A stretch of DNA of 64,000 nucleotides, taken from assembly GCF_041381155.1 (NCBI RefSeq), contig NC_091147.1, forward strand, positions 14,780,318 through 14,844,317. The letters run 5' to 3'. The position numbers and the translations under genes were made by a program. Shown piece by piece: positions 49,558 to 63,474 of the stretch. The stretch is from Argopecten irradians. Lineage: Eukaryota; Mollusca; Bivalvia; Pectinida; Pectinidae. The first letter of the stretch is position 1. Each line of letters opens with the position of its first letter. The notes beneath the pieces were generated by a model. The model was not told the origin of the DNA, ran no database searches, and saw nothing but the letters and a program-made list of their open reading frames with translations.

Positions 49558-52500
49558 TTATACAATTTTCGTAGCTGTGACGTAGTCCTCAGTTTGTGCT
49601 GTTTTAGGTAAGTTCCGCCCCTGTGTGTGGCGGTTTTCATTTTCAGTAATAACGTAGTCCTCAGTTTGTGCTGTTTTAGGTAAGTTCCGCCCCTGTGTGT
49701 GGCGGTTTTCATTTTCAGTATTAGGTAAGTTCCGCCCCTGTGTGTGGCGGTTTTCATTTTCAGTAATAACGTAGTCCTCAGTTTGTGCTGTTTTAGGTAA
49801 GTTCCGCCCCTGTGTGTGGCGGTTTTCATTTTCAGTAATAACGTAGTCCTCAGTTTGTGCTGTTTTAGGTAAGTTCCGCCTCTGTGTGTGACGGTTTTCA
49901 TTTTCAGTATTAGGTAAGTTCCGCCCCTGTGTGTGGCGGTTTTCATTTTCAGTAATAACGTAGTTCTCAGTTTGTGCTGTGTTGCGGTTTTCATTTTCAG
50001 TAATAATGTAGTCCTCAGTTTGTGCTGTGTTGCGGTTTTCATTTTCAGTAATAACGTAGTCCTCAGTTTGTGCTGTTTTAGGTAAGTTCTGCCCCTGTGT
50101 GTGGCGGTTTTCATTTTCAGTAATAATGTAGTCCTCAGTTTGTGCTGTGTTGCGGTTTTCATTTTCAGTAATAACGTAGTCCTCAGTTTGTGCTGTTTTA
50201 GGTAAGTTCTGCCCCTGTGTGTGGCGGTTTTCATTTTCAGTAAGAGCTCTTATATCATTCTCAGAAATGTAGTCGTTGGTGTTCCCGGATGGAAGTAAGG
50301 GCTGTACTTCTCTGGTTTGGTTTTCATTATCGGACATAATATTATTTGCTTCGTTAGATGATAAAAGTGGTTCTTCGCATTGTTCATTGTTCTTATCAAT
50401 TCTAGAAATTTTGTCTTCACTAGAGCTATTTCTATTGTCAACAGTTTCAGTAATAAATCTTGCATCAATCTCGGAATTTAAGTCGTTGGGGTTCTTTGGT
50501 TTTAATAAAGACTGTCCCTCTGTGTCACGGTTTTCATTTTTGGGCATCATATCAGCATTTGTTTCATAACAACACCCTTCCTCGGATGTGCGATCTTCCC
50601 CTGATTTCTTGGAGTTCGATAGCTGATTATTAAATGTCTGATAAAGGTCATCTGTAGTCCAAGTTACTCGCACTCTGCTGTTCGAATTCGGTATGTCCAC
50701 CTTGTCGTATTCCCGGGCAGAAATGTCGATATCGTGCTTTTCATCGGGACTGCTTGAAGGGGTAGGTTGACACGGGCTGCATGCTTTCCCAATGGGGAAG
50801 CATTCATTTCGTCTATTTCCCGATGCATCGGTAAAAACAGATTCCGAACCCTAAATAAACAAAACGGACACATAAATAACTAGATGACCGATGGATGAAG
50901 GTACAGAGATAGTGCTGAAACAGATAAGCCATCACAAATCGGATTTTAAGGACATGCAAAGCCCAGTGGTTCTAGGGAGTAAAAATATACCTTATTGGAA
51001 AACTAATTTCAGAGGTATTTTTTTTTTACGTTCGAATGCTAAACTTTATCTCTCAAGATTTCTCATGGTTTCATTTTCGGACATAACATTATTCGTTTTG
51101 TTAAGATGAAAAAGTTGTTCATTGTTCTTATGAACTCTAGAAATTTGGCCTTGAATAGAGCTATTTCTTCTGTCAACATTTTCATTATAAAATCTTATTA
51201 AGCTATTACCGCAAACTTTTGTGTCATTGCATTAGTTTTCCTGTACGTCTTTCATAAAGCATTTCTTATGAATATGCGGATTTATCATTAATATATGCTT
51301 ATCCGTTCAAAACCACATTTTGCACTAGGCCTGAAGTTGTATTGTTCCAAATAATGATCGTGAAACTTTAGCTATTCTTGACATGGTACATGTACCTGGA
51401 TTGTAAAATTCACATAATAGTGTACTCTGATACTTATATTGGTTTGGTCCTTATTACTTACACTTTGTACATCACTAGGAATAAGAGGGACGTCTATCTG
51501 CTGCGTGTCCTGACGAACCTTCTTATAGTAGCCCCTGAAATGTAAAATCTTTGTAGTAAATTTTCAATAACAAAAGCCTAGGATCTTAAAAGTCCATTTG
51601 ATATTTTGACAGTTAGAATTATGTTTTGATAAAATTATGTATTTTATTTTACGGATATATCCATAGTCCATGTGTCCTGTTGTAATACATTTCATGTTTT
51701 AAATCACTTTCCCGGAATGTATGATATATCGAGAAACCAATATCTCATTGTTTTAATACCACTTTGTATTCTCATGTAAATCTCTTGACATTTTACTTGC
51801 TCCACTGCTTTTTGTTTTTGAATCTCCGTTTTGCTTTATTATTGCAATCTCTGATTTACCTAGTGTAAAATGTGTTACCCTCTTTACTTACAGGATTTTC
51901 TTGCAGGCAATAACTGTACCGATACACACTGTCACAGCACCAATTATAATACCGAGTAGCAGGAAGGTCAAGTAGGTTCCTGGAACTAAACACGTTATTA
52001 AATTATTAGGTACTTCAGTTGTAATTCAGGAATATTGACGACTGTTCTTATAGATGTTTAAGTAATGCGATATTATAGAATAATGTTCATAATTTGTAAG
52101 CGCGTTGTTAATTGATAATCGATTTGTATCAGTTTGATTTTAGTACTAGTGTGGTGGAGTCAAAGAAATAGCCCTGCTTAAATGACCTTAGTTGTTTTGA
52201 AATAGGACATTAAACTTACTCCACCATGTTTTAAAAATCGTAATTCAACTTTATGGCATTGTTTAAGCTGGTATCTTTCTCGAAACATGTGCATTTGTAA
52301 TGTGAAATTGAAATAGGATTTGACGTTAGCCTGTTGATACAATCTATTTTAAGGACCTCCACAAATAAGACGTGTCTTGTAATATGTATGATCATTACAT
52401 GCAGATCAATATCAAACGACGGTCTTATACGCAACAGTTTTCTATCAACTGTGCATGTACAATTTCATTGAGTTTGAAAGGACTGAGTAATCGATTTGTG

Positions 52501-55500
52501 AATACAATGTAGATATGGTATCGATACTTTTTTGTATGTCAGAAATTAAAAACATTTTTATAATCTTTCAACGGTTGCAGAATGCAATCGATGAAATCAA
52601 ACTATCCTCGGTGTCTTTACGACGTTTTCCGGTTTCATGAACTCACCGCTAATAACAAAGTTACGACCTTCACTAGGCCTACTCAGAATTCCATTGAAAT
52701 CCCCCTGGATCCACCAACGATAATGCCCAGCTGTTAGCTCTTTCACGAGGTACGACTTACTCTCCATAGAAACGTTCACTGTAAACAGAAAATTACGGTA
52801 AAAAAATCATGAAATATTTCACCAAAATTGACACTGCGCAAAATAAAAGTTTGCGTTTTTCATTTACTTTATAATCTCCCTTGGAAGGTCTCTTAAAACA
52901 GTTTTGACATTAGACATTTTCTAAGTCGTTTAGGTGCATAGATGATATGCTTTTTTGCAGTTTGTCCAAAGAATATCTTACGTCAATTCATTTGTTATTA
53001 CAATGTATTCTACTATCTTTTAACCATGAACTGTTGTAGATGTTTTGAAATGGATGTTTTTATATATGTTGACGTCATCGAGTTTGTAATACGAAATTGA
53101 AAAAAATCTTCATCAAAACAATGAACTGCATTATCATCTTTTCTCAAAGAGCACGTAAATTGACAAAATCTTGACACGCACCTGTCCTGTTGACCCCATT
53201 CTCATCCATGATGGTGATGATGGCATACTTGGCCAATCCGTAGTTAGGGTTACAGTCTGGGTATGGGACCCAGGAAAACAGGACACCATCGGATGGGAAG
53301 CTCATCGTAGTGTCCATTTTTGTTGTTGGAACTGTGAACGTAAATATTAAACATATGTAGTGATAAACTAGATTTGTAATAGTTCTATTACAATCAGTGG
53401 TGATCCTAATTATTCCATTTAAGGTAATTCGCTCCAGTTTACACTTCTAATGATATTTTGCACACCTTTAGGCTTTATATGCTTCGGGGCTTACATTAGG
53501 TATTTCTGTTAACTCGTACATATTGTTGTGCAACTTGTAAATTGTGGCAAAATATACGGAAAATGTACATTTTAGTAAATAAATCCATAGGGTTCGGAAT
53601 ACATTTCTCTCACCAAATATCGATTCCACTATATTTACTAGTTTCTGTAGCAGATCCAAGGAGCGTTTGTTTGACCGGATTCTACTTTACAAAATCATAG
53701 ATTTTCTCTCTGACAATCAATGCTTGTACACTGTAGCATTTTCCATGAACCAGCTGTTTGGTTAGTTCGATGTTCGTTATGATGCCCAATGTTTCAGTGG
53801 TTTTCAAGCCAGCATTTCAATATTTCTGAAAATTTAAAAATAGACTTACCGCCATATTCCGAGCGTGTGCACGTGCTCCATTTGATGCCCGAGCTAACAA
53901 GTCCTTCGTGTGTTTCCGCCTCTACGGATATTCCGAATCGGTAAAGTTTAAAAGGTCTTGGTAGGGTCAATAGCACACTGCTCTCGTTGGGATAGATCGT
54001 TCGGTTCGTAATTAAAGACTGAAATTGGAATATTGATAGTGTAAAGATTTTCTTATCATTGATATACAATCAAACTTGCCTGAAACGACCACGCAAGATA
54101 CCAGAGAAAAATGGCCTATACAGTCAAGCAGTTTTTATACATGTCAATCTGGGTTATAAATAACCATTTGGGACAACAAGTATTGTTAAGCAGGTGGTCT
54201 TTATACAATGGTGGTCGCTAAGGCAGGTTTCACTGTATAACTATTCTTCTGGACTCCAATAGTAACACACACAGGTAAAGATGTTTCCTTCTAGATGGTG
54301 TAAAACGATGAATCTATTTCAATCAACCCACTTATAAGTAGCGTTCAATATCAAAATGTGATTTCTAGATGTACGCTTTCCCCATAAAGGCATTACATAA
54401 TTTGCTTTTGATATAAACCAAAAAACCTCACCAAACATGTGTAGTTAACGGACGCCATACAATAATGTACGGTATATGCCGAGGCTTTCGAATGGACATC
54501 TTGCCAAGAGAGGGATACCGAAGTGTCGTTAAAGGCATCCACAGTCAATGAGGCCACCTTTTCTGGACCTTCACATAAGAAAGATTAGGCTTAATATTAC
54601 ATTCAAGTCGGCCATAAAATGAAATGAAAGCTTAAGAATGATTCAAAGAAGTATTTTTCAAAATCGAAGGTAACCGTTTCGCCACTGCCATCTTTCATGT
54701 GATGACGCCACAATAATTTGATACAAAAAAATATGCCATACATGGTATTAAAATAGTGACAGATGCAGACGACATTATATGAATAAAGTCACGGGATCAC
54801 GGGAACTACGTCATAAGCACAAGCAGGGGTTAATATATGTAAATATTTACGACTTACGCTCTTTAGAGACAATTACACGGCGGGTCGTGTCTCTTGAACA
54901 TCCAACACTATTACAGGCTTGTAGTAGGATTGATGAAGTTGCGTTTGGAATCGTAGGCAAACTGATTGAAAAACCCTCTGAAGAAATTACTTCCTTTGTT
55001 CCATTTTCATCACTGAGAGTGATATTGTAGAAAAAATCTGGCCCGTTCCGTTGGCAGTAGTTAAGTGGCTATAATAAACAAACAAATTATAGATAATGTC
55101 AGAATAAATTTTAGTGATTTTTCTATACACTACTATGGACATATATTAGATGGTGTCGTGCTCCCTACATTGTGTCCGCTGGGGAGTTATCGCCCTTCAC
55201 CGGATGTGAAGATGAAAAAGAACGCGCTGAATGCAGGAGGACAGCGTTAGTTGGAGAGTGACGGGGACAACGGCTCAAGGAGCGGTGTATCCATGAACTG
55301 TATGTATATGTGTCTTCGAAATGAACTGAAGGAGGTTGCCTAACGTCGTGAACGTGTGTATCAACTGTGATGTCGGTGCATAGGTATTTAGCACGCTGAT
55401 AAGTCAAAGACCCACTATAGACTAATATATAGCGAAAGGTAAGGAACTCCTCCGTGACGCAAAATTGGGTAATTTAGTTCAAAGTGTTGTAATAAATATC

Positions 55501-58500
55501 CAGACCAGATATTTCAACGGCTTTGGTCTTAATTGAAAGTTAAGATGTTACACTTCACGACGATAACAAGAAATCCTACTGAACTTGTCTACTTTTTTCA
55601 CAAACAGCCTCGAAACTTGAAAAATTGACGAATTTCCGTTAGTCGGACACGATCGAGAACATTTTTACAAACGAAAATGTCTATTCGCTACACTGAAAAC
55701 ACGGCAGCCTACAATTACCGGCTTTGACATAAACAAACAACAGGTGAAAACAAATGTATTTACTTGTTTGACGGTTCGTTCAAATCCCCCTCTCGTGGTC
55801 CTTATCTCGTTTTTCAGCGTTAATAGTTATCCGGGTCAGGTTGACTGCCATTTTGCCACTATCTTGAAAGTTATGTTTAGCCTAATCTCATTGGTCGGTT
55901 GGTTTTAGCTTAGCCAATGAGATTAGCTACCTTAACGATGAAAAACGAGATAAGGACCACGAGAGGGGGATTTGAACGAACCGTCAAACAAGTAAATACA
56001 TTTGCTTTCACCTGTTGTTTGTTTATGTCAAAGCCGGTAATTGTAGGCTGCCGTGTTTTCAGTGTAGCGAATAGACATTTTCGTTTGTAAAAAATGTTCT
56101 CGATCGTGTCCGACTAACGGAAATTCGTCAATTTTTCAAGTTTCGAGGCTGTTTGTGAAAAAAGTAGACAAGTTCAGTAGGATTTCTTGTTATCGTCGTG
56201 AAGTGTAACATCTTAACTTTCAATTAAGACCAAAGCCGTTGAAATATCTGGTCTGGATATTTTTTTACAACATTTGAACTAAATCACCCAATTTTGCGTC
56301 ACGGAGGAGTTCCTTACCTTTCTCTATATATTAGTCTATAGTGGATCTTTGACTTATCAGAGTGCTTAATACCTATGGTCGGTGTAATACGCGTGGAACT
56401 GTTGCGACGGCTGTGTGCATGTGTGCACCGTGTGGAAATTGGGTCACAGCGATTATAGTGTTATTGTGTTAACTCGACACCCCCTATTGTTTTGTTATTA
56501 TGTCTAATTAAATGTTAAATGTATCTCAACGTCTCTGTAGTCATTTCATAGTCCAGCTAACAAATATCTTCCAATATACCCAACGAAAGATCCCAAAATA
56601 AATTAGTCTAGGGATAAGGTGAGCGGAATCGTCTTTGGACGTGGTCTGTTTCGCCTCTGCCCCACACTAGATATTTATCTAGATCTTTTTCTCCTGACAA
56701 CTTGGGGGCTCGTCCGGGATATTTTTCATGGGTAAATTGTTGGACTATGAAAGTGACTACAGGTGTTGTACGTTTATATACCTATGCATTAGAATATATA
56801 GTGTTATATATTTGTATAGGTGTAGATAGTCGGTGTATCATGTCACCTCTCTACCGAAAGTTAGACATGAACCCTCAGTAGTAGCTGTAGACTAGCTGAT
56901 AGCATTAGAGAACCATTACAGAGTGTCAAAATAGGTCGGAGTGTATAATATTTATTATGCTATTATTCTGAGAGTCAGGATAGGTTGGGCATATTATTAT
57001 CAATTGTTATTTTGCACTAGAGTGTAGGTTGGTTGCTATGTGTAATCTATCATACTGGACAGGGTACATGTATACATGTCTATTTATAGAAATACTGTGG
57101 ATTTACTGTTATTCTAGACAGGGTAGAATAGGTCGGGTAATATACACAGATATTTTAGACATACTAGGATTAGCGCACAAAAGTGTTTGTGTTTTTTTAG
57201 AGTTCAAGTTCCAGAATTTGTGAAATTTGGATATTTTTGAGTAGAATCCTCATAACCGTGATTATTTGTGGTTTATTTTCCATACTTATATGGTGTAAGC
57301 GACTGGAAATATACCATGGATTACGAAAAGTGGTTAAGTATTGGGGAGAGGCTTGGTTATAAAGAAGCTGAATTACAGCAGTTTGTGGCAGCCAAGGAAA
57401 GGGAGTACTTAGAACGAGAGGAAAGAGCAAGGAGGCGTGAAAATGAGAAGGAACAAAAGGAGGAGGAGTTACGCAAGCGTGAACTTGAGGAAGTGGAGAG
57501 AGATAGACAGTTTCAACTCGAAAAGCTTAGAATGGAGAATGATGTAGAGATGACTAGACTTACGGCAGAACAGGAAAGGAACGAGAGGTCAAGGTCACAT
57601 ACAGAGGAGTCAAGGTCAATGTCATTGCGACCCAAGCTACCAAAGTTTGACGAACAAAAGGATGACATGGATGCTTTTCTTGAACGTTTCGAGAAGTTTG
57701 CTATAGCACAGAATTGGAGTAATGAAATCTGGGCTGTGAGCTTTAGCCCTCTGCTTACCGGAAAGGGACTTCAAGTCTATTCAAGCATGTCATCGACACA
57801 GATCAACGATTATGACGAGTTGAAGAAGGCACTCCTCAGAAGGTATGAGCTAACAGAGGAAGGATTCGTGTGAAATTTAGAGAAGGAAAACCTGAGAAAG
57901 GTGAAACTGCATTTCAGTTTGTGGCTAGATTAACTCGATATCTGACGAGATGGACTCAAATGTCAGAGATTGCGAAATCGTTTGAGGGATTAACAGACCT
58001 GCTAATAAGAGAGCAGTTTATCCAAGCGTGTTCGTCAGACATGGCACTTTTCCTCAAGGAGAGAGCACCTAAGGATGCTCGGGAGCTAACACGACTCGCT
58101 GAACAATATATGGAGGCCCATGGAGGAAATATTGGGAAGTCTAGCAAGGCCACATACAACTCGAGTAAGCCGAACCAACAAGTACGTAATAATAACCCCC
58201 AGCAACAGAAAGCGAATGACAAGACAACAGAAGTGAAAGGTCAGAGGACACGACTCTGTTTCATTTGTGAAGGTCATATCGCGAGAGATCATGCAGATAG
58301 AGGCAAGATAGGATCAAGGCCTAACAAAGGTGGTCAGAGTAAGGACACCAACAAGGCAGCACTTTGTAAATCTACACAGAAGGAGAGGGCTGTAACAGAT
58401 GATTGTATTAGGAGTGAGATTCACAGTAAGAAAGATTCAAGCACAGCGATAATGGGACGTATACGACTGGAAAACAGTGGAATGCCTGTTCAGCTTGGAT

Positions 58501-61500
58501 ACGTGGGAGATCACCCGGTGCAGGTTTTAAGGGACACAGGTTGTAGCAGCGCAGCTGTTAGGGAAGCACTCGTAAAGCCTGACCAGATGACCGATCGCGA
58601 ACTCTCATGTATACTGATTGGTGGAACAGAGCGGAAGTTCAGACTGGCTAAGATTGATGTTGATACCCCTTTCTATGTAGGAGAGTTAGAAGTAATGTGT
58701 ATGAAGGATTTAATCTACGATCTCGTGATCGGTAACGTGGACGAGGCAAAGTTAACAGCGGATGTTGATTGGAGGCCGCGTTCAGAGGAATGCAAGTCAG
58801 CTGCTGTAATGACCAGGACTGAAGCAAAGAAGGAGAAACAAGCTATAAGGCCGTTGAACGTCCAAGTGAAGGAGATTGAGCTTGTCGGACTTAAAGGACT
58901 AGAGAAAGCCCAAAAGGCAGACAAGTCACTGGCCAAGTGGCCGAGATAGCGAAAACCAAGGGAGACAACCCCGGTAATAAGTACCGAATGGAGATGAAGG
59001 ACAACATATTGTATCGTTTCTACAAACAGAAGAGAGGAGAACTGATTGAGGAGATACGACAGATTGCTGTTCCACAGACATATAGAGGGTAAGTCATGTC
59101 ACTTGCACATGAGTCAATTGTCGGAGGACATTTAGGTGTACAGAAGACTATCGACAGGGTTTCAACAAGTTTCTACTGGCCGGGTATGGTCAGCGATGTA
59201 ACACGCTACTGTCGATCTTGCGATATATGCCAAAAGACAACACCGAAGGGCAGGGTTACCAAGGTACCGTTAGGAGAAATGCCATTAATTGAGGAACCAT
59301 TCCAACGTGTAGCGGTGGATTTGATTGGTCCGATTTATCCGGCATTGGAGACTAAAAACCGTTACATACTGACAGTAGTGAATTATGCCACTAGATACCC
59401 TGAGGCGATAGCATTACCAAAGATTGAGACAGAGAGGATAGCAGAAGCGCTCCTGGAAATATTTTGCAGAGTTGGTTTCCCGCAGGAGATACTTAGTGAC
59501 AGAGGGACACAGTTCACCTCAGGACTAATGGAGGAGGTGTGTAGACTGGTGCCAGTCAAACAATTATTCACGACGCCTTACAATCCCAAATTTAACGGCT
59601 GGTGTGAGAGGATGAACGGAGTTCTGAAGAGCATGTTAAAGAAGATGTGTCAAGAACGACCAAAGGATTGGGACCGATATATCCCTGCAGTATTATTCGC
59701 TTACCGGGAAGTCCAACAAGCGATTACCGGATTCTCACCGTTTGAACTTTTGTATGGGAGAACAGTTCGCGGGCCCATGCAGGCGTTAAAAGGAATCTGG
59801 ACAGATGAGGCTAACGAGAAGTCTGAAACAAGGAACACTTACCAGTATGTTCTCAACCTTAGGGACAGGTTAGAAGAAACCTGCAAGATAGCTCGTGAGA
59901 GTTTACGCCAATCACAAGGATCGTACAAACACCACTACGACAAGAAAGCTAGGAATCGCCAACTTGAAGTCGGACAGAAAGTACTGGTGTTATTACCTAC
60001 TGACAACAACAAACTTTTGCTTCAGTGGAAGGGGCCATTCAACATAGTAGAAGTTGTGAACCAAATGAACTATAAAGTTGAGGTTGGTGGTAAAGTGAAA
60101 GTATACCATGTGAACTTGCTAAAGCATTATGTTGAAAGAAAGGACAGCAAAGAACAGAATGAGGCAAATAGTGAAGCAGGGTCAGCAGGAATATAGCAGC
60201 AGGGATAGCTGTTATCGAGGAGGAGGATGCAGTTGATTGCGGAGCAGTGGATGACGAAAATCTGTTAGAGCTTGGAAATTTCTCCGGGAAAGAGAATTTT
60301 AAAGATGTCCAGATAAGCGAGGACTTAACGGAGGAGCAGCGATCACAAGCGATTGCACTTCTAGAGGAATTTCAGGATATGTTCACCGATATACTTGGAA
60401 CGAAACATTTACAGGAACACCGGATCGAGACAACCTGTGATGATCCGATAAGAGTCAAACCGTATCCCATTCCTTATGCTAAGCGGAAAGAAGTCCAAGA
60501 AGAAGTAAGGAAAATGGTGGAAATGGGTATAGTCGAACCATCGACATCAGCGTACAATGCACCAATTGTCATTGTAAAGAAGAAGGACCAAACCAACAGG
60601 GTTTGTATTGACTTTCGTAAGTCGAATGCCATTACGCGATTTGATCCTGAGCCAATGGGAGACATTGAGGATATAATGACGAGACTCAACAAGGATAAAT
60701 TCTTCTCAAAATTCGACTTGAGCAAGGGTTACTGGCAGATACCAGTGGAGGAGAATTCGAGGCACATGACTTCCTTCTCGACCTCGGAAGGATGTTACCA
60801 ATTTCGGAAATTACCATTCGGTCTTGTTAACTCAGGAGCCACATTCAACCGTATGATGAGAAAGATGTTTGATGGAAGCAAGAACACCGACCACTACGTA
60901 GATGACATACTTGGTCACAACCACACCTGGAAGGAACACATTGAGGATCTACGGGATCTCTTTGCAAGGATTCGAGACGCGAATCTAACAGTTAGGCCTT
61001 CCAAGTGTATGATCGGCTACAGGACATAAGGATTTGTAGGACACACCGTGGGCGCAGGCACAATCGCCATGGAGGATGATAAGTTGGAAAAGATCCGCGA
61101 CGCTCAACAGCCAAAGACGAAAAAGCAAGTCAGAGCTTTCCTTGGACTCGCCGGGTATTACCGGAAATTTGTACCAAATTTTGCCGATGTCGCGAAACCT
61201 CTATCAGAACTCACCAAAAAGGACCGGCCGAATCAAGTGGATTGGGGACCACAAGAGAAAGACGCGTTCAGGTGTCTCAAGGACCTCCTTACCCAGGCCC
61301 CGATTGTACGGTTGCCAGGTCTTTTCAAAACTTTTATCGTGCAATCAGATGCCTCAGATACTGGTTTAGGTTGTGTTTTACTACTAGAACACGCTGATGG
61401 TATATTTCCAGTCGCCTACGCAAGTAAGAAACTACTTGATAGGAAAAGAAACTATTCAGTAATTGAGCGAGAGTGTCTTGCTATTGTGTTCGCTATTAAG

Positions 61501-63474
61501 AAGTTCCAAATGTACTTGTACGGTCGCGAGTTTATACTGTATACATGTACAGATCATAGGCCATTGGTGTTTATCCAAAAGAGTAAGATAGAACGTAGTA
61601 GAATCATGCGATGGGCTCTGTTCTTACAGAACTACAAGTTTCGCATTAAGGCAATTAAGGGGTCAGAAAATGTAGCAACAGATTATCTCAGTAGGCAATA
61701 TTAGTTTTGTCATTCTGTTCCCTACTAAAAGTTGTCCTTGTAGATATGTTAGAATTTAAGATAGGATTTTTGTATATATGTATGCATTTATTCTTAGTGT
61801 TGTGAAAATACATAAAGCTAAGTATTTTCAGAAATAGGGGGTTGTCAGAATAAATTTTCGTGATTTTTCTATACACTACTATGGACATATATAAGATGGT
61901 GTCGTGCTCCCTACATTGTGTCCGCAGGGGAGTTATCGCCCTTCACCGGATGTGAAGATGAAAGAAAACGCGCTGAATGCAGAAGGAGGACAGCTGTATG
62001 TATATGTGTCTTCGAAATGAACTGAAGGAGGTTGCCTAACGTCGTGAACGTGTGTATCAACTGTGATGTCGGTGTAATACGCGTGGAACTTTTGCGACGG
62101 CTGTGTGTGCACCGTGTGGAAATTGGGTCACAGCGCAAGAGGCAATAGACTGTTGGTATAATTATAGTGTTATTGTGTTAACTCGACACCCCCTATTGTT
62201 TTGTTATTATGTCTAATTAAATGTTAAATGTATCTCAACGTCTCTGTCGTCATTTCATAGTCCAGCTAACAAATATCTTCCAATATACCCTACGAAAGAT
62301 CCCAAAATAAATTAGTCTAGGGATAAGGTGAGCGGAATCGTCTTTGGACGTGGTCTGTTTCGTCTCCGCCCCATTCTAGATATTTATCTAGATCTTTTTC
62401 TCCTGACAGATAAACATTGCGAGTATTGCAGTTTGGGACCTTCACCCTGATCTTACAATGATGAATCTCCAACTAGCACCATATCCTTTTTAGTTTATAT
62501 ATGGGCCATATTACCTTGACTAATTCTAACAATCCTGAACACCTGTGAAAGATTGTTGATGCTTTAAATAGGAGTGATTTATTCACAAAATTGTATAGAA
62601 ACCAGCATTTGACGGAGAAATATCTATCTGTACCAACAGCGACATTTATAGATAAGCTGAAGACCCCAATGTCGATCTTTTCCCCTATTTTTACGTTACA
62701 AACAATAATAAACAATGTTTCAAATAACTCAATCAATCGTTTTTGAATTTATAATCTGAAAACAAATATCCGAACAAACAGACAAAAAGGGAGTTCCCAC
62801 TTTCGGTTTCAATCAGTATAACAGGATAAAATGCATACTCACAATCCAGGAAACCTGTGTTCGGTTACTATTGTCCTCCGGGTAAAACGACCCGGGATGA
62901 ATGTACGGGTTGATTTGTGGAACTGAAAATGTTCAAATAATATATGTCTTATGTTACTTTTATGGGAAAATATATATGGAATCATTATGGAGCTATGGAA
63001 ATATCTTTCTTAACTCCAACAGTGATAAATAATTAAGCTCTTATTACTGACGTTTAATTTTTTCAAAAAGAAGTTCATAATGAAAATCAACAGAACAGCC
63101 GTGAATGAAATATCTATACGATATTTCTAACTATTCTTATCTAAATATCACATTATCATATCTTTGTTCGAATGGATCAATTGTCTCGCGAAGTCTAGAG
63201 GAAGGGAAATGAGGACTCCTTAAAAAAATGTCTTCATATCCATTGTAATGTTTTAGATTAATCAGACAGGCTAACAAAATAAGAGATCAGCTCAATAAAG
63301 ACATACATTGAGGATACACGGACGACAGACATACTTACCATCCGCTGCTGTGGTAAGGATGATAGAGACCGGATCACTCTGATGCTCCACTGTCTGGGCG
63401 GTGACGTCAAATGTATAGTTAGCGAATGGTCTCAAACCAGTAATAGTTATCGATGTGCGGTTGGTCGACAAGTT
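49558..63474 (-). CDS. Class I cytokine receptor, gp130/Domeless-like (3' part, ten exons)
   Basis: Cell-surface receptor expected to signal through JAK and STAT. Exons, 5' to 3': 63339-63474, 62843-62922, 54858-55068, 54432-54568, 53850-54018, 53182-53331, 52647-52778, 51892-51985, 51462-51534, 49558-50850. All have GT/AG sites and matched phase; earlier exons lie to the right of the window. Extracellular part: the end of one fibronectin III domain (LRPFANYTFDVTAQT), then three more, each coded by two exons. The module SAYTVHYCMASVNYTCL to SSGIKWSTCTR resembles the gp130/LIFR/Domeless pattern (xxxWC...C, SSGMxWxxC). Membrane helix: YLTFLLLGIIIGAVTVCIG. Juxtamembrane GYYKKVRQDTQQIDVPLIPS contains a Box1-like IxVPxIP. 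The last exon encodes 430 residues with a repeated tyrosine array. Many N-glycosylation sites occur. The intron between exons 62843 and 55068 holds an LTR element. Domeless orthology is likely, not proven. Confidence 0.8.
49575..50245 (-). repeat. Coding minisatellite in the receptor tail, eleven units
   Basis: Three modules recur in frame: A = TENENR, B = HTQGRNLPK, C = TAQTEDYVI. Reading from the N-terminus the units are ABC, AC, ABC, AC, AC, AB, ABC, ABC, AB, ABC, ABC, of 72, 48 or 45 bp, all multiples of three. Module C gives nine tyrosines in an acidic context (TE(D/N)Y(V/I)(I/T)). Units are nearly identical at DNA level, so the array is young and probably varies in copy number. Confidence 0.92.
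51055..51205 (-). pseudogene. Degraded duplicate of part of the receptor tail exon
   Basis: In the intron before the last exon, the minus strand of this stretch reads like the tail segment at about 50315-50465. RNSSIQGQISR and KNNEQ resemble RNSSSEDKISR and KNNEQ of the real exon, and both are followed by NNxMS(D/E)NE. It has diverged, has no clear splice sites, and is probably a decayed internal duplication. Confidence 0.75.
55097..56699 (+). repeat. Left LTR, enlarged by a nested element
   Basis: Matches the right LTR outside the 1-kb insertion at 55379-56377. It also differs from the right LTR by a segment of about 60 bp present only here and one of about 35 bp present only in the right copy. 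It begins 28 bp upstream (in gene orientation) of the receptor exon at 54858-55068. Confidence 0.9.
55379..56377. mobile_element. Foldback element nested in the left LTR
   Basis: 999 bp, composed of two nearly identical inverted arms of about 440 bp (55379-55820 and 55936-56377) around a ~115-bp centre. Ends are CATAGGTATTTAGCAC and GTGCTTAATACCTATG. The 7-bp GTCGGTG flanks it (55372-55378 and 56378-56384). The right LTR shows the uninterrupted site GATGTCGGTGTAATACG, which fixes the boundaries. No coding sequence; the mobilising family is unknown. If transcribed it would form a long hairpin RNA. Confidence 0.9.
61843..62408 (+). repeat. Right LTR
   Basis: 566 bp from TGTCAG to CTGACA, preceded by a G-rich purine tract. 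It is the uninterrupted counterpart of the left LTR. GATAA follows directly as the target duplication. Confidence 0.92.

What the first reader, a model, noticed from the sequence alone, without database searches (positions are those of the whole stretch)
49575..50245. Nine-fold tyrosine array made by a coding minisatellite in a cytokine-receptor tail
Eleven in-frame units built from modules A (TENENR), B (HTQGRNLPK) and C (TAQTEDYVI) fill half of the cytoplasmic tail. Every C module presents one tyrosine in the same acidic context, nine in all. In this receptor class tail tyrosines are docking sites for SH2 proteins, so copy-number change would tune docking valency. The motif (Y-V/I-I/T-T) is not the classic YxxQ STAT3 site, so the partner is open. 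This is the strongest candidate here for something undescribed.
Basis: partly seen in the sequence, partly recalled or inferred. Interest (0 to 1): 0.85.

Follow-up and report, generated by a model that had tools for sequence, protein, structure and literature searches.

The report
Tyrosine repeat array in receptor tail
The last exon of an apparent invertebrate relative of the gp130 cytokine receptor contains a young in-frame DNA repeat that copies one possible signalling tyrosine nine times, which would be a natural dial for signal strength if those tyrosines are used, but nothing seen here shows that they are.

Summary
On the minus strand, 50241-49558, 11 A, 8 B and 9 C modules form units of 72, 48 and 45 bp, all in frame: 227 of 459 cytoplasmic residues, nine tyrosines. 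A spliced model (11 exons, phases chaining, one terminal stop) places it in the last exon of a single-pass receptor with FN3 stalk, box1-like exon and, upstream, Ig-like and CRH-like exons: gp130/IL6R-type by architecture, but no WSxWS was found.

The array is young (six variants, four non-synonymous), so its invariant tyrosine is uninformative. Of two older units upstream, one keeps the tyrosine. Tandem arrays are common in this genome (28% of a 50-kb sample, 6% of the window). A likely paralogue has an unrelated tail. The tail has no YxxQ, YxxM, YxN, ITIM, ITSM or NPxY. Published SH2 preferences fit TEDpY[V/I]IT partly to SOCS2/SOCS4, so a negative-regulator platform is my preferred guess, barely ahead of a neutral spacer. 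No orthologue, allele or transcript could be examined. New variant of a known kind (compare DRD4 VNTR, CagA EPIYA-C); interest moderate.

The parts
49558..50241 (-). coding minisatellite: 11 A, 8 B, 9 C modules, units of 72, 48 and 45 bp, nine tyrosines, then TATKIV and stop
49558..50850 (-). last exon (430 codons), nearly the whole cytoplasmic tail; acceptor TTTATTTAG before 50850, phase 0
50255..50339 (-). older diverged unit 2 (NENQTREVQPLLPSGNTNDYISEN); its tyrosine codon aligns with that of the array
   Evidence: DNA local alignment score 21; 0 of 500 codon shuffles reach it
50499..50562 (-). older diverged unit 1 (around NADMMPKNENRDTEGQSLL); no tyrosine at the aligned place, where the alignment is gapped; a tyrosine (CCYETN) lies five residues upstream of it
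   Evidence: DNA local alignment score 23; 0 of 500 codon shuffles
51069..51196 (-). relic copy of a tail-exon segment (110 of 127 aligned bases identical to 50461-50322) inside the intron between box1-like exon and tail exon; by eye no listed splice sites frame it as an exon
   Evidence: (L016)
51462..51534 (-). box1-like juxtamembrane exon, GYYKKVRQDTQQIDVPLIPSDVQS
51892..51979 (-). transmembrane exon, GTYLTFLLLGIIIGAVTVCIGTVIACKKIL
52647..52778 (-). second half of the last FN3-like domain (by eye)
53182..53331 (-). first half of the last FN3-like domain (by eye)
53850..54018 (-). second half of an FN3-like domain (50% identical over 38 residues to a place on C6, E 0.07)
54432..54568 (-). 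first half of that FN3-like domain (Pfam fn3 E 0.0024, below the family's cut-off)
54858..55068 (-). second half of an FN3-like domain
62843..62922 (-). candidate first half of that FN3-like domain, separated from it by an LTR-type element in the intron; picked by eye from 26 listed candidates because phases and FN3 pattern fit
63339..63474 (-). FN3 exon (Pfam fn3 2.5e-6); its partner exon and the Ig-like and CRH-like exons lie beyond 64000

Best explanation
A young coding minisatellite in the last exon of a gp130/IL6R-type receptor has copied one unit, already holding a tyrosine, into nine near-identical tyrosine sites on a tail end that is probably disordered. SHOWN: repeat, frame, consistent splice model, two older units beside it. 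INFERRED: it arose by slippage or unequal exchange, as tandem repeats do elsewhere in this genome, with translation keeping only in-frame length changes. Most likely mechanism, all inference: after ligand binding a JAK held at the box1-like exon phosphorylates the TEDY[V/I]IT sites; these bind SH2 proteins of the SOCS2/SOCS4 or SHP2 class rather than STATs; sites 16, 24 or 39 residues apart allow multivalent capture, so copy number would set how strongly the receptor is damped.
For: Repeat and modules. Frame: 10 of 10 spacings are multiples of 3, with three distinct lengths, against 27 of 51 in an intronic array of the same gene and 3 of 17 in four other, presumably noncoding, arrays of the window. 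Splice model of 11 exons, all AG/GT, phases chaining, 871 residues and one terminal stop. Ig-like and CRH-like exons upstream, by eye; one stalk stretch matches oncostatin M receptor beta, E 1.3e-5. STAT_bind matches at 2 places and SOCS_box at 49 places in the genome, some on small contigs that may repeat others. Tail modelled with mean pLDDT 34 and almost no secondary structure in the array (single sequence, so weak evidence). PMC2225448 section 7: SOCS2 and SOCS4 SH2 domains prefer I/L/V at +1 and +3 (leucine excluded at +3), SOCS2 also D at -1, SOCS4 accepts I, V, S, T, G at +3. PMC3296744 passages: SOCS2-like genes in molluscs, a SOCS4/5 intermediate in protostomes. Valency precedent: EPIYA-C duplication in CagA raises SHP2 binding more than a hundredfold (PMC4623810 passages).
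Against: No purifying selection visible: 4 of 6 substitution variants are non-synonymous, share expected 0.65 for transitions without selection. A 24-residue stretch of the rest of the tail holds a tyrosine in 42% of positions, so a tyrosine in the amplified unit is no surprise. One of two older units lacks it at the aligned place. Against the SH2 preferences: T at -3 (both SOCS2 and SOCS4), T at +3 (SOCS2), D at -1 and E at +4 (SOCS4) do not fit. The likely paralogue tail has no such site. The JAK profile found nothing, but it rang in no control either. The C-terminal FN3 part matched receptor-type tyrosine phosphatase F, not a cytokine receptor (E 5.8e-4). No phosphorylation, expression or allele data.
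Confidence: 0.45

Rival explanations
1. Neutral or nearly neutral disordered spacer: a minisatellite expanded in a tolerant tail end; the tyrosines were carried along and are not needed.
For: Tandem arrays are common here: 14112 of 50000 sampled bases and 4002 of 64000 in the window, with arrays in introns of the same gene and of the likely paralogue; 4:2 substitution ratio; no predicted order; array at the very C-terminus; one of two older units lacks the tyrosine; paralogue tail unrelated.
Against: Frame strictly kept, which shows translation but not use of the tyrosine. The older unit nearest the array kept its TAC codon while much of the unit diverged, one observation only.
Confidence: 0.4
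2. Activating platform: the sites dock STAT or another positive effector and nine sites raise signal gain.
For: Receptors of this class signal through tail phosphotyrosines, STATs among the partners (PMC3296744 passages); STAT domain matches at 2 places.
Against: No YxxQ in the tail; but the STAT preference of this animal is unknown.
Confidence: 0.1
3. The array does not reach the protein as drawn: pseudogene, alternative 3' exon, or wrong assembly of the repeat.
For: No transcript data; an LTR-type element in one intron ends 28 bases from an acceptor; one exon was picked from a candidate list; arrays are hard to assemble.
Against: The whole model is open with consistent phases; frame kept over 684 bases in contrast to other arrays.
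Confidence: 0.05

Closest known systems
gp130 / IL6R-type receptors, with molluscan IL6R-like and arthropod Domeless
   Same: Ig-like, CRH-like and FN3 exons, single TM, box1-like exon, long tail; PMC13203501 passages give Ig, IL6R domain, three to four FN3, TM and tail for IL6R and gp130, and trace IL6R to Mollusca
   Different: No WSxWS found, no YxxQ, half of the tail is one minisatellite; the word 'repeat' does not occur in that paper's main text
DRD4 exon 3 48-bp VNTR
   Same: Coding minisatellite in a cytoplasmic part of a receptor, encoding the third cytoplasmic loop (PMC7031506 passages); 48 bp is also one of the unit lengths here
   Different: G-protein-coupled receptor; proline-rich SH3 motifs (recalled) instead of tyrosines; polymorphism known there, not examined here
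CagA EPIYA-C repeats
   Same: Duplicated segments with one tyrosine each; duplication raises SHP2 binding non-linearly (PMC4623810 passages)
   Different: A bacterial effector, not a host receptor; binding is measured there. Offered only for how valency can work, not as kinship

Membership tests
gp130/IL6R-type (class I) cytokine receptor | Ig-like + CRH + FN3 stalk + one TM helix | tested here: inconclusive
   fn3 met (Pfam 2.1e-19); TM exon present; Ig-like and CRH-like exons read by eye, their Pfam and PDB sequence searches gave nothing significant; OSMR match on one stalk stretch, fibronectin matching better elsewhere, phosphatase F on the C-terminal part
gp130/IL6R-type (class I) cytokine receptor | WSxWS motif in the second CRH domain | tested here: not met
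   no WS.WS in the 871-residue model, the Ig-like piece or the D3-like piece; the D2-like pieces were only looked over by eye, and the D3-like border is not fixed
gp130/IL6R-type (class I) cytokine receptor | proline-rich box1 near the membrane | tested here: inconclusive
   IDVPLIPSDV begins at residue 18 of the 459-residue tail (sequence); likeness to box1 judged by eye; likely paralogue has KEIEVPEVDKEK
coding VNTR of the DRD4 kind | in-frame tandem units in a cytoplasmic receptor segment | tested here: met
coding VNTR of the DRD4 kind | copy number polymorphic among individuals | not testable with these tools
   the tail was found once in the assembly; no relatives or reads are held
SH2 docking array | tyrosines phosphorylated and bound by SH2 domains | not testable with these tools
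   only motif comparison possible

The most novel reading that the evidence does not exclude
A host cytokine receptor whose shut-off (or gain) is set by the allele length of a coding minisatellite: each repeat adds one SH2 site, so individuals differ in receptor valency, a receptor-borne counterpart of CagA EPIYA-C scaling.
Probability: 0.15. Interest if true: 0.85.

Novelty: new variant of a known kind. Interest (0 to 1): 0.45.

Why it matters
If the sites work, the SH2 valency of one receptor would be a naturally variable, countable trait, so the relation between docking-site number and cytokine signal could be tested in one animal population. If they do not, it is a clear example of a minisatellite building half of a receptor tail without visible selection, a caution against reading repeated tyrosines as function.

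Tried and rejected
Genome pattern search with a back-translated guess of module C found nothing; the codons of the array differ from the guess. Tail search of the whole genome: six matches, one is the locus itself; four of the others are unrelated tandem repeats and one is a single-residue match. Likeness of the middle of the tail to the unit: protein windows starting at residues 110 to 140 reach the observed score in 46 to 283 of 500 shuffles, so I count no further old units there; the windows at 100 and 160 gave 0 of 500, the one at 150 gave 5 of 500, and the whole pre-array part 5 of 2000. The 51-kb relic as an exon: listed acceptors and donor do not frame it, by eye. JAK profile uninformative. 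The sigma-70 scan was empty and means nothing in an animal. The structure model was too poor for a fold search, so none was run.

Papers. Searches for minisatellite + coding + tyrosine + cytokine receptor gave five papers, off the subject by title and abstract; for tandem repeats + cytoplasmic tail + SH2 + repeat copy number + tyrosine + receptor none; for domeless + bivalve + cytokine receptor + STAT together none; for four of five terms cytokine receptor, oyster, JAK, STAT, domeless 212, of which I saw 12 listed. I found no description of this array, within those searches only. Seen as passages: PMC13203501, PMC4623810, PMC7031506, PMC3514216 (56, not used), PMC3296744; PMC2225448 passages and section 7 (54, 55). 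Other papers were seen as listings only.

The likely paralogue rests on a 38-residue, 50% match with E 0.07 plus nearby Ig-like, FN3-like, TM and box1-like frames read by eye; its tail (C6:6430836-6431336) was assigned by eye from an ORF list, without a splice model.

Full report
What was checked. The window lies in an unnamed 846-Mb genome, contig C14. The finding's array is on the minus strand at 50241-49558. Parsed codon by codon it holds 11 A, 8 B and 9 C modules in 11 units and ends with TATKIV and a stop. Units are 72, 48 and 45 bp long, that is ABC, AC and AB.

Gene model. Minus-strand exons 64830-64682 (just past the window), 63474-63339, 62922-62843, 55068-54858, 54568-54432, 54018-53850, 53331-53182, 52778-52647, 51979-51892 (TM), 51534-51462 (box1-like) and 50850-49558 (tail) all have AG and GT borders and chain in phase to 871 residues with one terminal stop. 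Exon 62922-62843 was picked by eye from 26 listed candidates because it completes an FN3 pattern. Further upstream are an Ig-like exon and CRH-like exons, recognised by eye; their borders are not all fixed. Pfam finds fn3 (2.1e-19). One stalk stretch matches oncostatin M receptor beta with E 1.3e-5, while another stretch matches fibronectin better (1.5e-7), and the C-terminal FN3 part matches receptor-type phosphatase F (5.8e-4). The Ig-like and CRH-like pieces match no family or solved structure significantly, and WSxWS is absent from the parts searched. I call it gp130/IL6R-type by architecture, not a proven member.

Is it coding? Another minus-strand frame of the array is open too, as can happen when all units are multiples of three, so openness alone proves little. 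The 203 residues before the array in the same exon are open in the frame used, splice phases agree, and 10 of 10 spacings in the array are multiples of three, against 27 of 51 in an intronic array of the same gene and 3 of 17 in four other arrays of the window (the window's remaining arrays were not measured). The ten spacings hold only three different lengths, so the chance figure is about 1 in 27.

Age and selection. Six substitution variants separate the modules, four non-synonymous and two synonymous, all transitions. Junction residues between modules were not counted. The share expected without selection is 0.65 non-synonymous, so this is what neutrality would give, and the invariant tyrosine codon says nothing. 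Two older units stand upstream in the same exon (0 of 500 codon shuffles each). In the nearer one the tyrosine codon is aligned and kept; in the farther one the aligned place, which is gapped, has none, though a tyrosine lies five residues upstream of it. A relic of the tail exon, 110 of 127 bases identical, lies in the preceding intron, so this part of the gene has a history of duplication.

Genome background. Five 10-kb samples hold 14112 of 50000 bases in arrays of period 20 or more and three or more copies: 0, 6411, 3555, 239 and 3907. In the window the figure is 4002 of 64000. The sample is small and uneven, but tandem arrays are plainly common.

Paralogue. A likely paralogue on C6 has an Ig-like frame, FN3-like frames, a TM and a box1-like stretch, and a tail candidate with five tyrosines in unrelated contexts. 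If that reading is right the array is not shared by the two genes.

Function. The tail has no YxxQ, YxxM, YxN, ITIM, ITSM or NPxY; YxxPhi occurs three times, all outside the array (motif names recalled). In PMC2225448 (section 7 read) the SOCS2 and SOCS4 SH2 domains prefer I, L or V at +1 and +3, leucine excluded at +3; SOCS2 prefers D at -1; SOCS4 slightly prefers A at -1, accepts T at +3 and selects against acidic residues at +1 to +4; both favour I, L or V at -3. TEDpY[V/I]ITE fits at +1 (both), -1 (SOCS2) and +3 (SOCS4), and does not fit at -3 (both), +3 (SOCS2), -1 and +4 (SOCS4). SOCS2-like genes are reported in molluscs and a SOCS4/5 intermediate in protostomes (PMC3296744 passages); that this genome is molluscan is my recollection of its repeats and was not tested. 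SOCS_box matches lie at 49 places here; not all need be SOCS genes. Tandem sites can raise affinity steeply: more than a hundredfold for CagA and SHP2 on duplication of the segment (PMC4623810 passages). On this basis a negative-regulator platform is the most likely signalling role, at about even odds with a neutral spacer.

Verdict. It is a new variant of a known kind: a coding VNTR in a receptor's cytoplasmic part, here multiplying tyrosines.

Noticed in passing
joined coordinates 74777-71126 (L002 and L001, G000:C14 just past the window end): A 69-bp, 53-copy intronic minisatellite whose unit resembles the 3' end of the first CRH-like exon plus its 5' splice site; the consensus unit carries GTAAGTAAA (intact donors not counted). 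A human interferon-induced gene with a minisatellite of splice donors is recalled as precedent; one search did not find it.
   Followed up: partly
G000:C6:6418875-6419876 (L022): The likely paralogue has a 60-bp, 17-copy array whose unit resembles the 3' end of an FN3-like exon plus its donor (TGTAAG then GTAAGG): the same kind of array, seeded on an exon-donor junction, in a second receptor gene.
   Followed up: partly
joined coordinates 70160-70030 and 69931-69816 (L001): The second CRH-like half exon has an 81% identical copy about 100 bases further on; possible alternative exon or dead copy.
   Followed up: no
window 55097-62408: LTR-type retroelement in an intron with the integrase frame upstream of reverse transcriptase and RNase H, an order recalled for Gmr1-type elements; the left terminal repeat is interrupted by a palindrome of about 1 kb (55379-56377), and one end lies 28 bases from the acceptor at 55068.
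   Followed up: partly
window 49558-50241, plus strand: On the opposite strand AGGTAAGT occurs 8 times, as often as there are B modules, and TTTTCATTTTCAG 11 times, as often as there are A modules: consensus-like donor and acceptor sequences. Probably chance; no antisense gene was sought.
   Followed up: no
window 57849-58949: This frame of the element matches the Pfam SCAN domain (2.1e-9), in line with the recalled retroelement-capsid kinship of SCAN.
   Followed up: no
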